A stretch of 21,013 bases of DNA. It comes from a virus. The translations under genes were made by a program, and so were the position numbers. Every line of letters starts with the position of its first letter. The stretch's first letter is position 1. The stretch lies in the IMG/VR virus record IMGVR_UViG_3300030520_000120, positions 1 to 21,013 of that record. One strand, 5' to 3'. This document shows positions 6,107-18,669 of this stretch, one piece after another. The notes below the pieces were generated by a model. That model did no database searches, had not been told where the DNA came from, and worked only from the letters and a program-made list of their open reading frames with translations.

Positions 6107-9100
6107 ATGACCCAGCGCCCGCGCATTGTTCTTTTCTTCTTCAAAGCCGCCTCCATTCCTGAAGGCGCGCACTGGATGACGGTCCACCCGAACGGGCCGG
6201 GAACCAAGGGCCAGCCTGTCTTGGTGCAGCCGGTTTCGCCCGACTCCAAAACGTCCCATGTGATCGGCGGCGCAGGCGGCAAACTCAATTACCTCAAAAT
6301 CACCAGTACCAAATCTGCCGGTGACTATGCCAGGGAATCGGCAGAACGCGCCAAAGCGCGGCGCCAGGCCGACAAGGACCAGCGCATCAAGGATAAAGAG
6401 TTGGGCGTGGCCGATGTCAAAAAAGAAGCCAAGGGCGACGTCGCCGTCAAACGCAAGGCCGCCGAGCAGGCGTTCATCAAGACCGTCGCCGATGCGATGG
6501 GCTGGGACCATGATGCGATCGCTTTCGATCAAAAAGCCCACGAAGGACTGTCGCAGGGAGCGTTAAAAAAGGCCGGCGATCAACACCACCGCGCCACGCT
6601 TTCCGCTGCCAAGGATGCCGTCAACCTGCAGCGCAAGCGCCTGCTGGTCGACGCCGATGCCCGCAAACAGGCATTTACCGGCGAGATGCCGCTGCACACG
6701 GACGACTCCACACAATTGTCGGTGTCCGACCTCGACCCGGTGCGCGCCGATACCGGTATGGGGTTCGACCCGCACTACAAGGACCGTGCCGAGGCCGCCG
6801 GGCTGACGCCTGAAGAGGTCAAGGCGGAAAAAGCCGCTATCGCCGTCCAGGCTGCTTCCGATGCGGTCGAAACGCCGGACGTCGCGGCACCGAAAGGGCC
6901 GAGCGTCGCCGATAAGATCAAAGCAGAGCTCGCAAAGGTCAACGTCGACCGCCCGGATCTGCAGGCCAAAATCGTCGAGGTGCAGCAGGCCGTCGCGTTG
7001 TTGAAGGCGCAAAAGCAGCTTGCAAACATCCACAAGGCGGCGCGCGAGGCCACCTCGGCAATTGACCGCTCGGTCGAGCCCAAGGCCTACGTGCTGGAAC
7101 CAACCGATGCGTCGGACTCCGATATCGAAAAAAGCATCGGCGAAGATCTGCGCACCATTAAAACGGTCGCTTTCCTGGCCGCCGTCAACAAGGCCGATCC
7201 GCAAGGCTCCGAGCTTGAGCATCATGTCGCCGCCGGCGCTTTTAACTCGATCAACGCGATGGCGCTGGCCGCTGGTGGCCATGCGCTGATGGACCGCTCG
7301 GTGGTGGACGTCCTCGGTGCCGCCGCTGCATCCCAAGTGTTAGCGCGCCGACTGCGCGCGGATCTGGGTGACGAAAAAGCCGACGACATTGCCGAAAGCA
7401 TGGGTGACTTCCATTTGCAGCACTACGAGGATCTGTCCGTCTCGGCGCTGGCCGACGTCGCCGAACTGCACGAACAGGCCGCGCAACTTGATTTGGATGG
7501 CTCCGACAACGCCGAGGATTTGCTGCTCAAGGCGGAATTGAACCGCAAGCGCATGAGCGCGCTGGACGACGCGCAAAAAGTGCTGGGGCGCTCGCTGGGG
7601 GAAATGGAGGCCAACGCCGCGATCACCTATGCCTTGCGCGAAAAGGGCCGCAATGCCGTCCAGGTATCCCTTGGCAAGACCCCGCTCGACGCCGCGATTA
7701 AGCAGTTGCGTGCGATCGGGCTGCAAAAGGGAGATTACGCAATCGAAAAAGGCGGCAGCAACGCCTTCGTCACGATCAACGCGTCTGGCATGGATTGTCT
7801 GGCCCGGCCGGTCGATGCAGAAAACGTCGAGCGCATGCGCCGCAACCTCGGGATCATGAACGGCGCCGAAGACGAAGACGGTTGGCTGCCGAAAGGTTTT
7901 GCGAACCGGGCCGATCTGGCGTTAAAACTGCAGCCGGGGGTGGCGGACGCCATGGCGATCCCGTTCGAGCCTGGCACCGATTTGACCGCCTCGCTGAAGG
8001 ACTACATCGGGAGCCGCACGGCTGATGGCGATATGCCGGCCGATATCCTGTCGGATCTGCAATCGGCCGATTTCTTCCAGAAAGTCGGGGCTGCGCGCGC
8101 CACCGAGTACCGGGCGGCGCTCGATCAGGTTGCGCCCAACAAGCATCCGGACGGCAAGCAACTGCAGCGAGCCGAGGATCTATCTCCGCTGTTCAACCAG
8201 TACGCGGATGATTTCGTCGGCACCAGGTGGGGCGGCGAACGGTCGGCATTGAATAGCCAGACGTTCTCCGCGGACGATGTGGCGCAGGACGCCTTGCACC
8301 GGGCGCTGTCTGCGCAGCCCACCGGCGCGTGCGCCTACAAGCAGATCGGCGACTTGAACGACGGTGACATGCGCGCGCTGCGCAACCATTTCTATGCCAA
8401 CGTGGCAAAGGAAAGCCCCGAGCATGCCCAGCTCCGCGCGGATCTGGACAAGAACCAGGCGCAGGAGCCGGAAAAGACCACGGTCGATCTATTTGGTGAC
8501 ACCATGCCCAACCCGGACCACCAGGCATGGGCCTCGGCGCGCGACGAACTGACCACGAAAATCAAGGCTAGCGGCCTGAACTGGCCCGACTACGTCAAGA
8601 CCATGCGCAGTCCGGCCGCTGCCTACTCGGCGATGCAGGATAGCGTGCGTTCCACGGTTTCCGCCGAATTCGCCAAGCACTACAACATCTTAAAACCGGA
8701 CAAGCCGCTCAAGGTCGGACGCACGGTCATTCGCGGCAACTTGAACCATTTGGATGCAGTCGATCCGGCGGCGCGCGAAGCACGGATTCAATCCGAGCGG
8801 GAGCTGATCGATTCCCTGCGCGAACGCCACAACGGCAAATACACGTCAGGTTCCGTGGCGCACAAACTGGACGCCGCCAAGGAGCAAAAGGCCGCATTCG
8901 CGCAGTCGCAAATGGGCTTTTTCAGTTCGGATGAGGCACCGGCCGGATCTGGCGCCGACAAGTCGGAGCCACGTCCGCTCGGGCCAGATGAACGCCACAC
9001 GATTGGCCACGCCGCCGAGAACAGAATCGCCGCTATGATGGGCGTGGTCGGCAAGAACTTTGTTCCTGGTCAACCCGTTAAATTGTTTCACGCCTCGATG

Positions 9101-10663
9101 TCCGGCGGCGACAACGTCAAGCGGCAGCGGGCAATCAAATTCATGAAGGCCAACAAGCGCATGGTCGCCGGGCTTGGCGTCGGTTCGGGTAAGACCGGCA
9201 TCGGCCTGGGGGCATTCGTGGATCTGCATGCCGAGGGCAAGGTGAAAAAAGGCGTCTTTGTGGTGCCGTCGATCGTGCAGGGCCAGTTCGGCTCCGAGGC
9301 GCTACGTTTCCTGGAGGCAGGCAAGTTTAACTGGCATTGCCAACCAGGCGCGTCGCACGCGGAACGGCTCGCCTCCTACAAGGATACGAATACCGATTTC
9401 CACGTTGTCACGCATCAATCGTTCCGCGACGATTTATTAAAAATCGCCGCCAGGCAGGACGGTAGCACGTCGGATGATGTCGCCACCAAGATGGCGGCCA
9501 TGTCAGGAGACGAGCGCCAGGCATTCATGAAGGGCGCGCTTGCCAAGGAAGGCATTGCCTTTGACTTTGCCATGGCCGATGAAGCGCATGGCCTCTTGAA
9601 CCGGGAAGGAAAAGACAACAGCATCATGTCGAATGCGGTACAAAGCGTGACCGATGACGTCGCGTATTACCTGCATGCGTCCGGCGATCCGATCAAGAAC
9701 GACGCCTCGGAAGCCTTTGACTTGCTCGCGAAAATGGACCGCAAGCGCTACAACGACCGCGCGGCGTTCATGCGCCGCTACGGTGGCGATACCAAGTACG
9801 CGCAAGAAGGGCTGCGCCGCGAGCTGGCCCGCCACGCCTATACCGCATCCATCAAACCGGACGTCAACGTCACCAGGCATGAACGGCATGTGGAAATGAC
9901 CCACTCGCAACATGCCGCGCTGGCTGCGGTTGACAGTAATGTCGCCGCCGTCCGGATTGCCAAGATGCAGGGCAAGGTCAACATTCCGGCGCTACAGGCG
10001 CTTTCCCCCGAATCGTTCGCCGGCGCCGATGAATCGCACCATGAGGCGATCGCGCACAGTCTGACCAAAGCGATCGGCGTCATCGCCAATTCGGCCATCA
10101 ACCGTGTGATCAACGCGCACCCGGATTCGGGCAAGTTGAATGACCTTTCAAGTCTGGCGACTGAGTTACATGATCGGCCAGGCGTCGTCTTCGCCCGTTC
10201 GCTGGCGGCGGTCGACCAGATCAAGAGTCGTCTGGAGGGCGAGGGCCATCGCGTGATCGTGGTAACCGGCAAGGATTCGTCCAAGGACAAGGCCGCCAAA
10301 ATCCGCGCGTTCAATCCGGACTCGGGCGAGCGCCGTGCCGACATCGTGATCTGCTCGGACGCGGGCGCGGTCGGCGCTAATCTGCAGAGCGGCAGTTGGT
10401 TGGCGCAGTACGACACGCCCGACACGGCGATGGTCCACAACCAGCGTGCCGGGAGGGTTGCGCGCATCGGCCAGCAGAACGACGTCGACCTGTACGACTT
10501 GATCGCCAATCATCGATTCGAGCGCAACGCTCGCGCTCGGTTGTCGCGCAAGGAAGACTTGCGCCATGTTGTCACCAACCCGCTCGATGGTCTGGACGAC
10601 ACAGGACTCGCTTCCTTCCTGTTCCACAAGCAGCAGGCTTCCGTGCAGGCATCGATGTTCTAG
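6107..10663 (+). CDS. Giant Snf2-type helicase encoded among the head genes, possible virion-delivered antirestriction protein
   Basis: The protein has 1518 residues. An in-frame stop at 6089-6091 rules out an earlier start. The N-terminus has the HWMTVHPNG...GGAGGKLNYLKI segment (about 23-65), which recurs at the start of several proteins encoded after phage head morphogenesis genes. A long helical, Ala/Lys-rich region follows. The C-terminal ~500 residues form an SF2 helicase: Walker A GVGSGKTG (K1029), DEAH at 1158-1161, and motif VI NQRAGRVARIGQQ (Q1446), whose RIGQ ending is typical of Snf2 enzymes. It should use ATP to translocate on DNA. P1 DarB is a comparable large helicase packaged in the virion that protects injected DNA from restriction. 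No methyltransferase motif (NPPY/DPPY) was found, so the parallel is partial. Copurification with the head is an inference. Confidence 0.82.
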   Translation: MTQRPRIVLFFFKAASIPEGAHWMTVHPNGPGTKGQPVLVQPVSPDSKTSHVIGGAGGKLNYLKITSTKSAGDYARESAERAKARRQADKDQRIKDKELGVADVKKEAKGDVAVKRKAAEQAFIKTVADAMGWDHDAIAFDQKAHEGLSQGALKKAGDQHHRATLSAAKDAVNLQRKRLLVDADARKQAFTGEMPLHTDDSTQLSVSDLDPVRADTGMGFDPHYKDRAEAAGLTPEEVKAEKAAIAVQAASDAVETPDVAAPKGPSVADKIKAELAKVNVDRPDLQAKIVEVQQAVALLKAQKQLANIHKAAREATSAIDRSVEPKAYVLEPTDASDSDIEKSIGEDLRTIKTVAFLAAVNKADPQGSELEHHVAAGAFNSINAMALAAGGHALMDRSVVDVLGAAAASQVLARRLRADLGDEKADDIAESMGDFHLQHYEDLSVSALADVAELHEQAAQLDLDGSDNAEDLLLKAELNRKRMSALDDAQKVLGRSLGEMEANAAITYALREKGRNAVQVSLGKTPLDAAIKQLRAIGLQKGDYAIEKGGSNAFVTINASGMDCLARPVDAENVERMRRNLGIMNGAEDEDGWLPKGFANRADLALKLQPGVADAMAIPFEPGTDLTASLKDYIGSRTADGDMPADILSDLQSADFFQKVGAARATEYRAALDQVAPNKHPDGKQLQRAEDLSPLFNQYADDFVGTRWGGERSALNSQTFSADDVAQDALHRALSAQPTGACAYKQIGDLNDGDMRALRNHFYANVAKESPEHAQLRADLDKNQAQEPEKTTVDLFGDTMPNPDHQAWASARDELTTKIKASGLNWPDYVKTMRSPAAAYSAMQDSVRSTVSAEFAKHYNILKPDKPLKVGRTVIRGNLNHLDAVDPAAREARIQSERELIDSLRERHNGKYTSGSVAHKLDAAKEQKAAFAQSQMGFFSSDEAPAGSGADKSEPRPLGPDERHTIGHAAENRIAAMMGVVGKNFVPGQPVKLFHASMSGGDNVKRQRAIKFMKANKRMVAGLGVGSGKTGIGLGAFVDLHAEGKVKKGVFVVPSIVQGQFGSEALRFLEAGKFNWHCQPGASHAERLASYKDTNTDFHVVTHQSFRDDLLKIAARQDGSTSDDVATKMAAMSGDERQAFMKGALAKEGIAFDFAMADEAHGLLNREGKDNSIMSNAVQSVTDDVAYYLHASGDPIKNDASEAFDLLAKMDRKRYNDRAAFMRRYGGDTKYAQEGLRRELARHAYTASIKPDVNVTRHERHVEMTHSQHAALAAVDSNVAAVRIAKMQGKVNIPALQALSPESFAGADESHHEAIAHSLTKAIGVIANSAINRVINAHPDSGKLNDLSSLATELHDRPGVVFARSLAAVDQIKSRLEGEGHRVIVVTGKDSSKDKAAKIRAFNPDSGERRADIVICSDAGAVGANLQSGSWLAQYDTPDTAMVHNQRAGRVARIGQQNDVDLYDLIANHRFERNARARLSRKEDLRHVVTNPLDGLDDTGLASFLFHKQQASVQASMF

Positions 10664-14613: not shown

Positions 14614-14710
14614 GAAGCTGCGCGCATTGACTTCGTGCGTGAATGTGTTGAAATGGGCGCGGGGGAATGTTTTATCAGAAATCTTTTTGATACATGACGA
14701 AAGGAATATT

Positions 14711-15352
14711 GTGAAGGCTTCTACTTTTAGCTTATCTTCCCCACTGCCCTCTCTGCGCCAATGGAAACGTTGGTCGTTGTCAAACCGAATAGCCTCGGTA
14801 GGTTTGTTATTGGCCTTGATTTTCGGTCTGTATTCAATCATTTACCCTTGGGCGAAGTCACCGCCGCCTGCCTCTCATATCGTGAAAGATATTCAGGGAA
14901 TTTGGTATGCGGATTACAGTTACCCGTCTACTGGAGGTACCACACGGGTGCGGGGAACAACAGAATATTTTGCGAATGGCAGTGATAATTTTGTTGGTCA
15001 AATGATTGTCTCCGCAGCAGTGCAGGCCAAGACGGTAGAAGTCGCGTATGACGTGAGCGCAACGAATGCTTGGGAGTCTACCGATAAGGATTTGGTCATC
15101 AAAGTGTTCGATTTCAAATCGGACCCGACTAGGTTGAAATTAGGCGACTTGTCTTACGACATTTCCCAATGGCCGTCTTCAGCCCGTGCGATTCTTCCAC
15201 GGATTGAGGATATCGTTCTCAAGGGGACATCGGAACACTTCACTATCGTTGACTTTGGACAAGACAAGATGCGTTTGCGTGCCAAAGATCCGCGCGGCAA
15301 TCCGTTTGAAATCGTCGCTACCCGTGTCTCCGGTCGCTTTGTTCGAAGTTAG
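14711..15352 (+). CDS. Membrane-anchored periplasmic protein, lysogenic-conversion candidate
   Basis: The protein has 213 residues. GTG 14711 has AAAGGA 6 bases upstream; the frame is open from 14627, but no good start is seen there. A basic N-terminus (RQWKRW) is followed by one hydrophobic helix (about 27-48, SVGLLLALIFGLYSII) and a ~160-residue domain that would be periplasmic. That domain begins IQGIWYADYS and alternates hydrophobic strands (GQMIVSAAV, VEVAYDVSA, DLVIKVFDF), suggesting a lipocalin-like or other beta-barrel fold. Its base composition is lower in GC than the capsid and connector genes around it, and it has no virion homologue I recognise. I infer a moron, possibly for superinfection exclusion. 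Specific function unknown. Confidence 0.62.
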   Translation: MKASTFSLSSPLPSLRQWKRWSLSNRIASVGLLLALIFGLYSIIYPWAKSPPPASHIVKDIQGIWYADYSYPSTGGTTRVRGTTEYFANGSDNFVGQMIVSAAVQAKTVEVAYDVSATNAWESTDKDLVIKVFDFKSDPTRLKLGDLSYDISQWPSSARAILPRIEDIVLKGTSEHFTIVDFGQDKMRLRAKDPRGNPFEIVATRVSGRFVRS

Positions 15353-15537: not shown

Positions 15538-16365
15538 ATGTCAGCCAGTGTGTTATTCCCCAATCAGAACGAAGCGGTCGCCAATCTGCAGGCATTGCTT
15601 GTGCTTGGTGTCGGCAAATACCTGAACGTCAACGTCCTGATGCCGGCGCAACTGTGGAGCAAGCTGCAAGCAGCGGAGGCGTCGGCACAGCGGCAATTAA
15701 AAGTGTTCTTCGGGCCGACTGAAATCATCCCGGAATGGACGCCGACGCTGCGGCAGACTATCGATGCCTTTGAAGCGGCCGGAACCCCTTACGCGTTCCA
15801 GTCGGCATTCGACTACGACCCCGATGCGTTTCGGGACAATCGCTGGTCGTTCATGCAATTGACCCATACGCCCGTGCAAGCGATCCGTTCGATCTGGTTC
15901 GACGTGCCGTCTCCGTTTTTGATGGGTTTTACGGTGCCGAACGAATGGATACGGCTCGATAGGAAATACGGGCAGTTGCGCTTGATCCCCATCACGTCGG
16001 TGGCATCGCCTCAGATGGCCTATGGCGTGCAGTTGCTGGGCGGGGGTCGCGCGTATCCACTGTCGATCCAGGTCAGCTATCTGGCCGGACTGACGAACGT
16101 CACCGGCGCGGTGGTCTCGTCGTTTGTCGATGCCTGGGACGACTTGCTCGATGTCGTCTACAAAATGGCGATGCTTAAAATCATGCAGGACGCGTTCCTG
16201 CCGTCGTCGAGCTCGATCTCGGCGGACGGTTTGGCGCAGTCGGCCAGCATGGTGATGGCTGATTTCCAGACGACGATCGACGCGATCTTGTTCGGGGCGA
16301 AAGGCTCTAACGGCGGCTTGTATGCGTCGATTCATGGCGCCAGCGGCGTGCTTGCCGTTCTATGA
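15538..16365 (+). CDS. Head-tail connector (adaptor-like) protein
   Basis: The protein has 275 residues. ATG 15538 follows GGAGGG; the upstream frame to 15433 is Ser/Thr/Cys-rich nonsense crossing the hairpin and is rejected. The protein is mainly beta-rich in the middle (FDYDPDAF, LMGFTVPNEWIRLDRKYGQLRLIPI) and helical at the C-terminus (WDDLLDVVYKMAMLKIMQ). It lies after the capsid and before the neck protein, the usual place of the adaptor ring that docks on the portal. The stop overlaps the start of the next gene (ATGATG/TGA), so the two are translationally coupled. The role is inferred from position and general composition, because no sharp motif defines it. Confidence 0.68.
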   Translation: MSASVLFPNQNEAVANLQALLVLGVGKYLNVNVLMPAQLWSKLQAAEASAQRQLKVFFGPTEIIPEWTPTLRQTIDAFEAAGTPYAFQSAFDYDPDAFRDNRWSFMQLTHTPVQAIRSIWFDVPSPFLMGFTVPNEWIRLDRKYGQLRLIPITSVASPQMAYGVQLLGGGRAYPLSIQVSYLAGLTNVTGAVVSSFVDAWDDLLDVVYKMAMLKIMQDAFLPSSSSISADGLAQSASMVMADFQTTIDAILFGAKGSNGGLYASIHGASGVLAVL

Positions 16366-17000
16366 TGCTGTCGCCCGATTCGTTTAATGCATTTTTAGCC
16401 GGGATCGGCCAGCAGTATGTCTGGCGCAAGTCGGCTGCGTGCCCGTGCATCGATTCGCACTCGGGTGCGGCAAAGCCGTCCTGCCCTCTCTGTATCGGCA
16501 AAGGCCGGCAGTGGCAGGCCGGGGTCGATGGGGTCGCCGGCATGTCGGGAGTAAAAACACAGCACGAGTGGGCGCAGTTTGGCGTCTATGAAAGCGGCGA
16601 CGTGGTGGTTACCATCGGCAGCGATCAGCCGATGTATGCGATGGGGCAGTTCGACCGGGTGACGGCGTTGAATGCGACTAATCAATTCTCGCTGGTGCAA
16701 ACGCACGGTTCGCCGGTCGAGCGGCTATTGATGACGGTGGCGTCGATTGACCGTGTTTTTTGGTTGACGTCGGATGGGACGGCTACCGTTGACGGCGGTA
16801 TTCCGGTGGTCGCGGCAAACGGCACGTTGTCATGGCCGAATGGCGGGGAGCCGCCGGCAGGCGCCAAATATACGATATCGGGCGCGAAGTTTCTGGATTA
16901 CTTTTGTTATGGGGATTTCCCGGCCAACCGCAACGCGCAGTCTGGATCGCCGCTTCCCAAGCGGGTGGTTTTGCGTGACTTCGACTTGTTTATGCGCTAA
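16362..17000 (+). CDS. Neck/head-completion protein with a Cys-rich zinc-like N-terminus
   Basis: The protein has 212 residues starting at ATG 16362, overlapping the connector stop. CPCIDSHSG (Cys at about 27 and 29) and SCPLCIGKG (about 41 and 44) form a C-x-C...C-x2-C set followed by Gly, as in small zinc knuckles. This pattern recurs in phage neck proteins encoded between connector and tail completion genes. The remainder is beta-rich (VGIGSD-like turns, QFDRVTALNATNQFSLVQ), ending in a compact RVVLRDFDLFMR. It probably closes the head after packaging and joins the tail. It is followed by the AT-rich cargo gene rather than directly by the tail completion gene. Confidence 0.7.
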   Translation: MMLSPDSFNAFLAGIGQQYVWRKSAACPCIDSHSGAAKPSCPLCIGKGRQWQAGVDGVAGMSGVKTQHEWAQFGVYESGDVVVTIGSDQPMYAMGQFDRVTALNATNQFSLVQTHGSPVERLLMTVASIDRVFWLTSDGTATVDGGIPVVAANGTLSWPNGGEPPAGAKYTISGAKFLDYFCYGDFPANRNAQSGSPLPKRVVLRDFDLFMR

Positions 17001-17012
17001 TGTTTGAATTAA

Positions 17013-17025
17013 CAATTCTGAATTG
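17013..17025. promoter_or_regulatory. Palindrome CAATTC-T-GAATTG before the cargo gene
   Basis: A perfect 6+1+6 dyad in an AT-rich 36-bp gap, just before GAGGGA and the ATG at 17037. It could be an operator for the cargo gene, or it may reflect low-complexity AT sequence. Confidence 0.3.
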
Positions 17026-17036
17026 AGGGAACTTCC

Positions 17037-17786
17037 ATGTCAAAAGCAATCTACTCGGACGATGAACGAAGAGTAATTAAACAGACAGTCGAAGAACTAG
17101 GCAACAAAAAGATGAAAGAAGGTTGCCATGGTTTTAGAGACTACTCAGACAAAACCATTCGTGAGGCAGCAAGACTGCAACTTAACAAGCCAAAAAGTGA
17201 GAACAATGCTGCGATCTCCGTTATTGGCGTCGTGCTTGGGGCGAACAGAAATTGGGAAAAAGTGGTTCGCCCTAATCTGGATTCCCTCAAGGACTCTCAA
17301 AAATACGGAAGCATGACGTTTGAGCAACTCGAAGGACTATTGATTGCCATAAACTTTGAGGGCTTCAAAGAAGTTTGGGGCCACAGAGACGAAAAGAAAT
17401 ACAATACTCTGAAAGAGTTAGTTGCGGCCATTCGCGATTTTGCACAATTGCATCCGGGGTTAAGCGATTTCGATCTGATGTCACAATGGGCCAGAAATGC
17501 AAAATTGGAGAATCGAAGAACCGATATACTGGGCTCCATTCGGAATGTTGGAATCGCAACATTTCAGCATCTTCGACTTACATTCGGAGTGGACACGGTT
17601 AAGCCGGATCAGCGTGTAATGGAAGTTTTGCAACTTGAATTTGGTAAAAAACTTTCCCCTTCAAAAGCGATATTAGAGGTCGAAGAAATTGCTCGCATTG
17701 CGGGTCAAAGCGTAGCTATGATCGATCAGATTTTTGTCAAGTATGGATCGGGTTACCTAAAAAAGAACTCATCTTGCGAAGATTGA
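17037..17786 (+). CDS. HhH-GPD DNA-glycosylase-like protein (cargo gene)
   Basis: The protein has 249 residues. GAGGGAA precedes the ATG. It is clearly more AT-rich than its neighbours, with codons unlike theirs. The C-terminal half has the helix-hairpin-helix plus Asp layout of the HhH-GPD superfamily: IRNVGIATFQHL (N170-V-G172) followed by FGVDTVKPDQRVMEVL with the probable catalytic Asp191. The position of the lyase Lys in endonuclease III is Ala174 here, so a monofunctional (AlkA/MutY-like) base excision enzyme is predicted, if active. No Fe-S Cys cluster follows. The N-terminal ~120 residues are helical and not recognised. It is inserted between two neck genes and convergent with the next gene. 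A defence or modified-base role is inferred only. It could also be a non-catalytic HhH DNA-binding protein. Confidence 0.55.
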   Translation: MSKAIYSDDERRVIKQTVEELGNKKMKEGCHGFRDYSDKTIREAARLQLNKPKSENNAAISVIGVVLGANRNWEKVVRPNLDSLKDSQKYGSMTFEQLEGLLIAINFEGFKEVWGHRDEKKYNTLKELVAAIRDFAQLHPGLSDFDLMSQWARNAKLENRRTDILGSIRNVGIATFQHLRLTFGVDTVKPDQRVMEVLQLEFGKKLSPSKAILEVEEIARIAGQSVAMIDQIFVKYGSGYLKKNSSCED

Positions 17787-17826
17787 TGTGGATTCAGCTT
17801 CTACGAACATTTCATTTCTCCGGACA

Positions 17827-18669
17827 TTAGATCGGTGGCCGCCTAAACACCTCCGCCAGCACAGCGTCAGCCTGCGGTTGCAGTTGATCGGCCACCTTCT
17901 TGGCCAGGAACAACCCAGGTTTGGCTGGCACCACCCAGCCGGTCGACCCTTCCATCATGATCCTGAAGGTCAGATAATTTGATCCGCCGGTCGATTCCTT
18001 CATCCGCACCATGCCTGCGTATTTCTTTTGATCGGCCTTCGATTGCCCGCTCAACATCTGTGGCGTCAGACGATCTCCCCATGCGGTTTGGCTCTTGTTG
18101 ACCATATAGGTCTTGCCGGTTTTATGGTTGGAAAGGTAGTGCGTTTGTTTCGCGGCCACCTGCATTCCTGACTTGGGCGACAGGAGCGTAATTTCCCCGG
18201 ACGGTCGGGTACCGGAACCCGTCACGCTGCTATGCGACAGTTTCAGCGCCAGCTTGCCGACCGCAGGCGGCATCGACGGCGCGTGTGCGTCATTGCCCGG
18301 CGTGTTGTGGCGGATCGGAATCACCAGAAACCGTCGCCCGTCTTTCGTTCTCCGCACCTTGCTGCTGGTGTCGAGCATCTTCTTCAAATCGCGCGCCGGC
18401 CTGCCAGTTTCGATTTCATCGGCGTATTGGTAATCGCTGCTAACCACCGCCGAGAACGGCCCGGTCATGTCGACCTTGATCGAGGCCATGTAGGGTGTTT
18501 TCTCGCCGGTCCATAGCCGGGCGTCGTACACGGCCCGCTGCCAGTTGGCCTGCGCCCGATAGGCGATCGCCTCTACCGCCTGCGTGATCTTCGGCAGCAT
18601 CGCGCCGTTGACGATCTGTTTTACCTCCAGCGCGTTCGGGATGTCGATCGTAAATGTGTATTGCGCCAT
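17827..18669 (-). CDS. Tail completion protein, HK97 gp10-like, on the opposite strand
   Basis: The protein has 280 residues. The minus-strand ATG 18669 has AAGGAGG 6 bases upstream, the best ribosome binding site in the window. The first ~100 residues carry the gp10-like layout: a helix with AIAYRAQANWQRAVYDARLWTG, then YMASIKV, then SSDYQYADEIETGRPARDLKKML. The middle is basic and loop-rich, and the C-terminus returns to a strand and a helix (STGWVVPAKPGLFLAKKVADQL). Such proteins complete the tail end that meets the head. All other virion genes here run rightward, so the opposite orientation is odd. The gene converges with the glycosylase-like gene and diverges from the tail-terminator-like gene, over a 65-bp region holding motif copy 6. 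Confidence 0.78.
   Translation of the reverse strand: MAQYTFTIDIPNALEVKQIVNGAMLPKITQAVEAIAYRAQANWQRAVYDARLWTGEKTPYMASIKVDMTGPFSAVVSSDYQYADEIETGRPARDLKKMLDTSSKVRRTKDGRRFLVIPIRHNTPGNDAHAPSMPPAVGKLALKLSHSSVTGSGTRPSGEITLLSPKSGMQVAAKQTHYLSNHKTGKTYMVNKSQTAWGDRLTPQMLSGQSKADQKKYAGMVRMKESTGGSNYLTFRIMMEGSTGWVVPAKPGLFLAKKVADQLQPQADAVLAEVFRRPPI

What the first reader, a model, noticed from the sequence alone, without database searches (positions are those of the whole stretch)
17037..17786. AT-rich HhH-GPD glycosylase-like gene embedded between neck genes
The gene has foreign composition and interrupts an otherwise standard order of neck genes. Its HhH (N170-V-G172) and Asp191 fit the superfamily, with Ala at the lyase-Lys position, which predicts a monofunctional glycosylase. 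DNA glycosylases have been reported as antiphage proteins that excise modified bases, so a prophage moron of this type could exclude rival phages with modified DNA.
Basis: partly seen in the sequence, partly recalled or inferred. Interest (0 to 1): 0.55.

Follow-up and report, generated by a model that had tools for sequence, protein, structure and literature searches.

The report
Phage cargo gene resembling DNA-repair glycosylases
A tailed phage carries, inserted between two genes at a spot where most related phages have nothing and some carry other mobile genes, a foreign-looking gene whose protein is predicted to have the fold and catalytic aspartate of enzymes that cut damaged or modified bases out of DNA, but which base it removes and why the phage keeps it are not known.

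Summary
ORF 17037-17786 (249 aa, GC 43%, GC3 42% against 0.70-0.80 in most large neighbours) lies in an 826-bp insert between two convergent genes. In related phages these usually abut or overlap (37 of 44 convergent loci, not dereplicated). The other inserted loci carry GIY-YIG homing endonucleases, an antitoxin-domain ORF or an unknown ORF, so this is a recurrent cargo site.

The protein is an HhH-GPD-fold DNA glycosylase by a confident model (pLDDT 88.9; MagIII, EndoIII and MjOgg at Z 14-15), with independent profile support. Asp191 aligns with EndoIII Asp138 and Ala174 with the lyase Lys120. It matched no Pfam, NCBIfam or PHROGs family at E<=1. The only close relatives found are two proteins of bacteria that read TGA as glycine; one lies beside an Mrr nuclease and AbiEii.

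Distant relatives, with the Lys, are often encoded beside QueC on prophage contigs and a plasmid. A monofunctional glycosylase acting in conflict with other DNA is my best reading. The antiphage role is inferred, not shown, and the known antiphage glycosylases (Brig1/3) belong to another superfamily. Lesion repair is the main rival.

The parts
17001..17826 (.). 826-bp insert at the convergent junction of orf16362 and the minus-strand gene 17827-18669
   Evidence: Relatives have a gap of at most 1 bp here in 37 of 44 convergent loci
17025..17029 (+). GAGGG, probable ribosome-binding site 7 nt before the ATG
   Evidence: read from the sequence
17037..17786 (+). HhH-GPD-fold DNA glycosylase-like protein, 249 aa (P0001)
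   Evidence: AF2 model pLDDT 88.9, pTM 0.85; VIA-align Z 15.0 to MagIII, 14.6 to EndoIII, 14.3 to MjOgg; reciprocal HMM
17127..17144 (+). codons 31-36, HG(F/Y)xDY motif shared with the two close relatives P0002 and P0006, absent from the distant proteins aligned
   Evidence: alignments A3 and A8; role unknown
17529..17582 (+). codons 165-182, helix-hairpin-helix; Ala174 (17556-17558) at the lyase-Lys position
   Evidence: hhalign to E. coli EndoIII
17607..17609 (+). codon 191, putative catalytic Asp in KPDQRV
   Evidence: invariant in the 13 sequences of A8 and the 6 of A4; aligns with EndoIII Asp138
17724..17750 (+). codons 230-238, DQ(I/M)FVKYGS C-terminal motif of the subfamily
   Evidence: alignment A3
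16362..17000 (+). upstream flank: virion structural protein (phrog_1004)
17827..18669 (-). downstream flank: conserved convergent gene of unknown function (phrog_16819)

Best explanation
The gene is an acquired cargo gene of a tailed phage. It encodes a monofunctional HhH-GPD DNA glycosylase of a small, unnamed subfamily near OGG2/EndoIII/MagIII. Proposed mechanism: the helix-hairpin-helix grips the DNA backbone, a damaged or modified base is flipped out, Asp191 drives cleavage of its glycosidic bond, and an abasic site is left, because Ala174 replaces the Schiff-base lysine and the enzyme should not nick. Shown: insertion at a variable site also used by homing endonucleases; the residues by alignment; the fold by prediction. 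Inferred: catalysis. Inferred more weakly: that the substrate lies in competing or incoming DNA, so that the gene serves inter-phage or phage-host conflict.
For: Fold: pLDDT 88.9; all 50 entries listed by VIA-align are HhH-GPD proteins, Z 11.4-15.0. Profiles: an HMM of 14 distant OGG-like proteins finds P0002 at 1.8e-15, P0006 at 5.5e-12 and P0001 at 0.0014, above all 9729 decoys (best decoy 0.3); a six-sequence alignment holding the gene finds 8-oxoguanine glycosylase 9o00 at 2.1e-5, SsOgg 3fhg at 1.2e-4 and EndoIII at 0.0015 among PDB sequences. Residues. Insertion. Site reuse: L016 (= L061) has GIY-YIG plus NUMOD3, and the inserts of L063 (identical in L068) and L074 are 40-49% identical to it and each other. 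Conflict context: P0006 beside Mrr_cat (1.2e-30) and AbiEii (9.1e-19); PADLOC OGG profile 3.5e-6 for P0002 and 2.6e-4 for P0006.
Against: P0001 alone matches no Pfam, NCBIfam or PHROGs family at E<=1 and PADLOC OGG only at 0.014. A profile of the three close members alone finds no glycosylase in PDB sequences. The confident model rests on an alignment in which 9 of 11 rows are 13-21% identical; with only two close sequences the model was poor (pLDDT 47.7). No Foldseek match reaches E 0.001, and the aligner's note warns that helical models can reach Z about 13-14 by common arrangement. The other close relative (P0002) lies near smpB and a glycyl-tRNA-synthetase-like ORF (my reading), not a defence island. 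No promoter-like site of its own was found. There is no substrate evidence.
Confidence: 0.5

Rival explanations
1. It is a lesion-repair glycosylase that protects the phage genome or the lysogen from oxidised, alkylated or deaminated bases.
For: Its structural neighbours are mostly repair enzymes. One close relative lies near housekeeping genes. Viruses encode such proteins: Foldseek against viral models lists Endonuclease III of Halogranum tailed virus 1 and methyladenine glycosylases of giant viruses (best E 2e-3), and phage PaBG has a uracil glycosylase domain (PMC7412058, passages).
Against: Sporadic presence: 0 of 30 related phage records matched the A4 profile (no positive control rang in that search). 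It sits at a cargo site shared with homing endonucleases. One relative is in a nuclease/AbiE neighbourhood.
Confidence: 0.3
2. It is a hitchhiker or part of a homing system: an abasic-site maker that came with, or replaced, a homing endonuclease at this junction, and whose breaks promote its own gene conversion.
For: The same junction holds GIY-YIG-type homing endonucleases in 4 of 7 inserted loci, two of the four nearly identical.
Against: No second gene is apparent in the window's 826-bp insert. Another non-nuclease insert occurs (MbcA/ParS antitoxin domain). No homing glycosylase is known to me (recall, not searched).
Confidence: 0.1
3. It kept the fold but lost catalysis and acts as a DNA-binding or regulatory protein.
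For: The lyase Lys is absent and the N-terminal extension is lineage-specific.
Against: Asp191 and the KPDQRV surround are invariant in all three subfamily members, and monofunctional HhH-GPD enzymes lack that Lys anyway (established knowledge).
Confidence: 0.08
4. It is not an HhH-GPD protein; the motif match is chance.
For: Single-sequence searches are silent, the three-member profile finds no glycosylase and the two-sequence model was poor.
Confidence: 0.02

Closest known systems
OGG2-type 8-oxoguanine glycosylase-lyases (MjOgg 3knt, SsOgg 3fhg; the class name is recalled)
   Same: Fold (Z 14.3 and 13.5), HhH, catalytic Asp register, sequence-profile hit
   Different: Lyase Lys replaced by Ala174; lineage-specific N-terminal HG(F/Y)xDY stretch; substrate unknown
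H. pylori MagIII 3-methyladenine glycosylase (1pu7) and EndoIII (1p59)
   Same: Fold, Z 15.0 and 14.6; Asp191 aligns with E. coli EndoIII Asp138
   Different: 15 and 18% identity; no Lys120 equivalent. An Fe-S cluster was not tested.
OGG-like proteins beside QueC on prophage contigs and a plasmid; PADLOC OGG profile PDLC00910 (recalled, not checked, to be a type IV CBASS accessory)
   Same: Homology
   Different: They have GPKT with Lys and, in 12 of 18 loci, an upstream small ORF, deoxyribosyltransferase and QueC. The window has no QueC or deoxyribosyltransferase hit, an N-terminal extension they lack, and no Lys.
Viral HhH-GPD proteins, e.g. Endonuclease III of Halogranum tailed virus 1 (BFVD R4T712)
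   Same: Fold match (Foldseek E 0.024, probability 1.00)
   Different: 14% identity over the alignment; no sequence-level link found
Brig1/Brig3 antiphage glycosylases
   Same: Proposed outcome: abasic sites in target DNA, primarily monofunctional
   Different: They are related to uracil DNA glycosylases (PMC11078745, PMC13160076, passages); this is an almost all-helical HhH-GPD model

Membership tests
HhH-GPD DNA glycosylase superfamily | HhH-GPD fold | tested here: met
   Model pLDDT 88.9; MagIII Z 15.0, rmsd 3.2, 198 aligned; EndoIII Z 14.6, rmsd 2.5, 181 aligned. The model depends on a distant alignment; best Foldseek E is 1.2e-3.
HhH-GPD DNA glycosylase superfamily | HhH hairpin followed by the loop with catalytic Asp | tested here: met
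   NVG(170-172) ... KPD191 aligns to EndoIII GVG ... VD138, probability 83% with the full alignment, 4% with the three-member one, same register
HhH-GPD DNA glycosylase superfamily | Asp191 placed inside the base pocket | tested here: inconclusive
HhH-GPD DNA glycosylase superfamily | Base excision activity | not testable with these tools
   needs an assay
OGG1/OGG2/EndoIII bifunctional glycosylase-lyases | Schiff-base Lys in the HhH | tested here: not met
   Ala174 in P0001 and Ala in both close relatives
QueC-associated / CBASS-type OGG-like proteins | GPKT Lys and neighbouring QueC | tested here: not met
   Ala174; no QueC or deoxyribosyltransferase hit in the window at E 1e-4
Brig-type antiphage glycosylases | Uracil-DNA-glycosylase fold (alpha/beta, established knowledge) | tested here: not met
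   The model is helical with only two single-residue strand/bridge positions and matches HhH-GPD; Brig relationship per PMC11078745 passages
Phage moron | Extra gene of foreign composition at a site empty in relatives | tested here: met
   GC 43%; 37 of 44 convergent loci empty
Phage moron | Own promoter and terminator, expressed in the lysogen | tested here: inconclusive
   No + strand sigma-70-like site found upstream; the consensus scan is weak evidence and expression is not testable here

The most novel reading that the evidence does not exclude
A probably temperate phage carries an HhH-GPD-type antiphage glycosylase, the first to my knowledge: a new monofunctional subfamily, moved between phages through a homing-endonuclease site, that excises modified bases from rival phage DNA; this would be a defence mechanism convergent with the unrelated Brig enzymes.
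Probability: 0.2. Interest if true: 0.75.

Novelty: new variant of a known kind. Interest (0 to 1): 0.42.

Why it matters
If the conflict role holds, base-excision immunity arose independently in a second glycosylase fold and travels on phages, and this subfamily's substrate would point to a DNA modification used by phages. Even if it is ordinary repair, the finding defines a glycosylase subfamily that the window protein's searches of Pfam, NCBIfam and PHROGs did not match at E<=1, and a reusable cargo site in the head-tail region of a clade of phages whose longest records are about 80-98 kb.

Tried and rejected
Chance motif: rejected by the reciprocal HMM test against 9729 decoys and by the fold. 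Brig family: rejected by fold. Member of a QueC/CBASS operon: rejected, no QueC hit in the window. Recent transfer from a TGA=Gly bacterium: disfavoured, because none of the 17 Gly codons of P0001 is TGA whereas 6 of 11 Gly of P0002 are. Wider distribution: no match to P0001 at E<=0.01 in 50,697 phage or 72,556 plasmid records; P0002 found three plasmid records at E<=1 and no phage; P0006 found no plasmid. By profile, 2 of 353 genomes of one class matched, one of them already known, and 1 of 286 of the phylum, the known one. Genomes of other phyla could not be searched by profile; the one genome-contig scan uses exact peptide patterns and finds close relatives only. A profile of the three close members found no glycosylase in PDB sequences. 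First structure prediction (2 sequences, pLDDT 47.7) was not used. Literature: the rows listed by the searches (capped lists; titles and starts of abstracts) showed no HhH-GPD antiphage glycosylase; I looked up passages in six papers (PMC13160076, PMC13329287, PMC13279940, PMC11078745, PMC7412058, PMC10448857) and read none in full; PMC13279940 returned no passage. PMC5336643 (actinophages) holds the term HhH-GPD and was not opened. In one search the GC3 values of the adaptor, the sheath and the 14712 ORF were computed in a wrong frame and are not used.

Full report
What is there. The window is a 21-kb virus record. ORF 17037-17786 encodes 249 aa. Its GC is 43.1% with GC3 42.4%; portal, helicase, protease, scaffold, capsid, orf16362 and the 17827-18669 gene have GC3 0.70-0.80, some smaller ORFs 0.62-0.69. 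0.25% of 750-bp windows are as AT-rich; outside the insert the lowest is 44.5%, at the left end of the window. A GAGGG ribosome-binding site precedes the ATG. A second contig, L001, carries the region with 1 mismatch in 5457 bases.

Where it sits. The upstream gene (16362-17000) matches phrog_1004, a virion structural protein (1.3e-30), and the downstream minus-strand gene phrog_16819, of unknown function (1.1e-55). In Pseudomonas phage Touem01 and Morganella phage Mecenats66, which have annotated tail sheaths, the two genes overlap by 4 and 14 bases with nothing between. The larger survey covers 51 loci: 49 from the scan plus these two phages. In 44 the two genes are convergent: 37 have a gap of at most 1 bp and 7 have an insert; 4 have both genes on one strand and 3 show only the downstream gene. 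The set is not dereplicated and contains the window's own virus (L009). The other six inserted loci are: L061, L063, L068 and L074, whose insert ORFs are related (40-49% identity among the three distinct ones; the L063 and L068 inserts are identical), with GIY-YIG and NUMOD3 shown by Pfam for the L061 contig (as L016); L064 (contig of L017), with an 86-aa ORF holding an antitoxin Xre/MbcA/ParS C-terminal domain (2.9e-16); and L054 (contig of L010, the closest relative), with a 327-aa ORF without a Pfam family (its GIY-YIG-like look is my reading). So this is a recurrent cargo site. Gene exchange around homing endonuclease genes in phages is described in PMC10448857 (search listing and passages).

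What it is. Single-sequence searches are silent (Pfam, NCBIfam, PHROGs at E<=1; PDB sequences, one unrelated chain at 0.44); PADLOC OGG is marginal (0.014). Two close relatives were found: P0002 (38% identity; L003, an uncultured-bacterium bin) and P0006 (42%; L008, genome G319 of the same class). Both read TGA as glycine, from which I infer Gracilibacteria-type Patescibacteria; no tool named the group. Distant relatives were found on three plasmids through P0002 (E 3e-4, 1e-3 and 0.5) and on 15 viral contigs. An alignment of six sequences finds, among PDB sequences, 8-oxoguanine glycosylase 9o00 (2.1e-5), SsOgg (1.2e-4), EndoIII (0.0015) and MutY (0.038), the first unrelated chain being TcaR at 0.041. 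The distant proteins alone find MagIII at 7.1e-5 and 9o00 at 2.7e-4; the three close members alone find no glycosylase. To avoid circularity I built an HMM from 14 distant proteins only: it scores P0002 1.8e-15, P0006 5.5e-12 and P0001 0.0014; the best of 9729 decoys scores 0.3. The reverse profile (three close members) finds 12 of the 14 distant proteins at or below 0.0011, the other two at 0.02 and 0.27, best decoy 1.9.

Structure. With two sequences the model was poor (pLDDT 47.7). With 11 sequences it is confident (pLDDT 88.9, pTM 0.85). The 50 VIA-align entries listed are all HhH-GPD proteins: MagIII Z 15.0, EndoIII 14.6, MjOgg 14.3, MutY 12.8, the fiftieth 11.4; 180 of 996 chains have Z of 8 or more. 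The tool notes that helical models can reach about 13-14 without relationship. Foldseek E-values are modest (best 1.2e-3, probability 1.00, none at or below 0.001). Nine of the 11 alignment rows are 13-21% identical to the query, so the fold partly rests on the homology that one search supports independently. Viral HhH-GPD proteins are not new: Foldseek lists Endonuclease III of Halogranum tailed virus 1 and glycosylases of giant viruses.

Active site. hhalign to E. coli EndoIII aligns Ala174 with Lys120 and Asp191 with Asp138, probability 83% with the full alignment but only 4% with the three-member one, in the same register. The three subfamily members share Ala at the lyase position, KPDQRV, HG(F/Y)xDY near the N terminus and DQ(I/M)FVKYGS near the C terminus. 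The distant group has GPKT with Lys. Monofunctional base excision follows from established knowledge of the superfamily, not from a test.

Role. For conflict: P0006 lies on one strand with an Mrr_cat nuclease gene and AbiEii; distant relatives lie in a module with QueC in 12 of 18 loci, not dereplicated, some of the other six being cut by contig ends; the insert site is a cargo site; 10 of 15 related records carry a tyrosine integrase. Against: P0002 lies near smpB and a glycyl-tRNA-synthetase-like ORF, P0001 has no promoter-like site upstream, it is co-directional with the head genes and 36 bp behind orf16362, which suggests late lytic expression, and nothing identifies a substrate. Brig1 and Brig3, the reported antiphage glycosylases, are related to uracil DNA glycosylases (passages), so they are precedent for outcome, not for this fold.

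Verdict. New subfamily of a known superfamily at a cargo site: a new variant of a known kind.

Noticed in passing
L038:5537-8537, L005:3544-6525 and 10 further loci: A conserved module, small ORF (about 125-130 aa) / nucleoside deoxyribosyltransferase with PfkB-like part / QueC / OGG-like glycosylase with the lyase Lys, on viral contigs and a Cupriavidus plasmid: all four parts found in 12 of 18 OGG-like loci, not dereplicated. PMC13329287 (passage) notes a QueC-PfkB pairing; the term glycosylase does not occur in its main text.
   Followed up: partly
window 14627-15352: A second AT-rich ORF (GC about 0.49; transmembrane-looking by eye) between orf14224 and the adaptor gene; no relative in the phage loci compared.
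   Followed up: partly
window 6107-10663: A 1518-aa helicase (phrog_62, 1.5e-144) sits inside the head gene block between portal and protease; Mecenats66 has a helicase at the same place. DarB-like antirestriction is a recalled parallel.
   Followed up: no
L010:6897-7880: The closest relative phage has a different AT-rich 327-aa ORF at the same junction, without a Pfam family.
   Followed up: partly
L017:6858-7118: An 86-aa ORF with an Xre/MbcA/ParS antitoxin C-terminal domain sits at the same junction in a 281-bp insert; a partner toxin was not searched for elsewhere.
   Followed up: no
window 17827-18669: This gene of unknown function is convergent with its upstream neighbour in 44 of 48 scorable loci, the window's own virus included: an odd conserved arrangement in this phage clade.
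   Followed up: no
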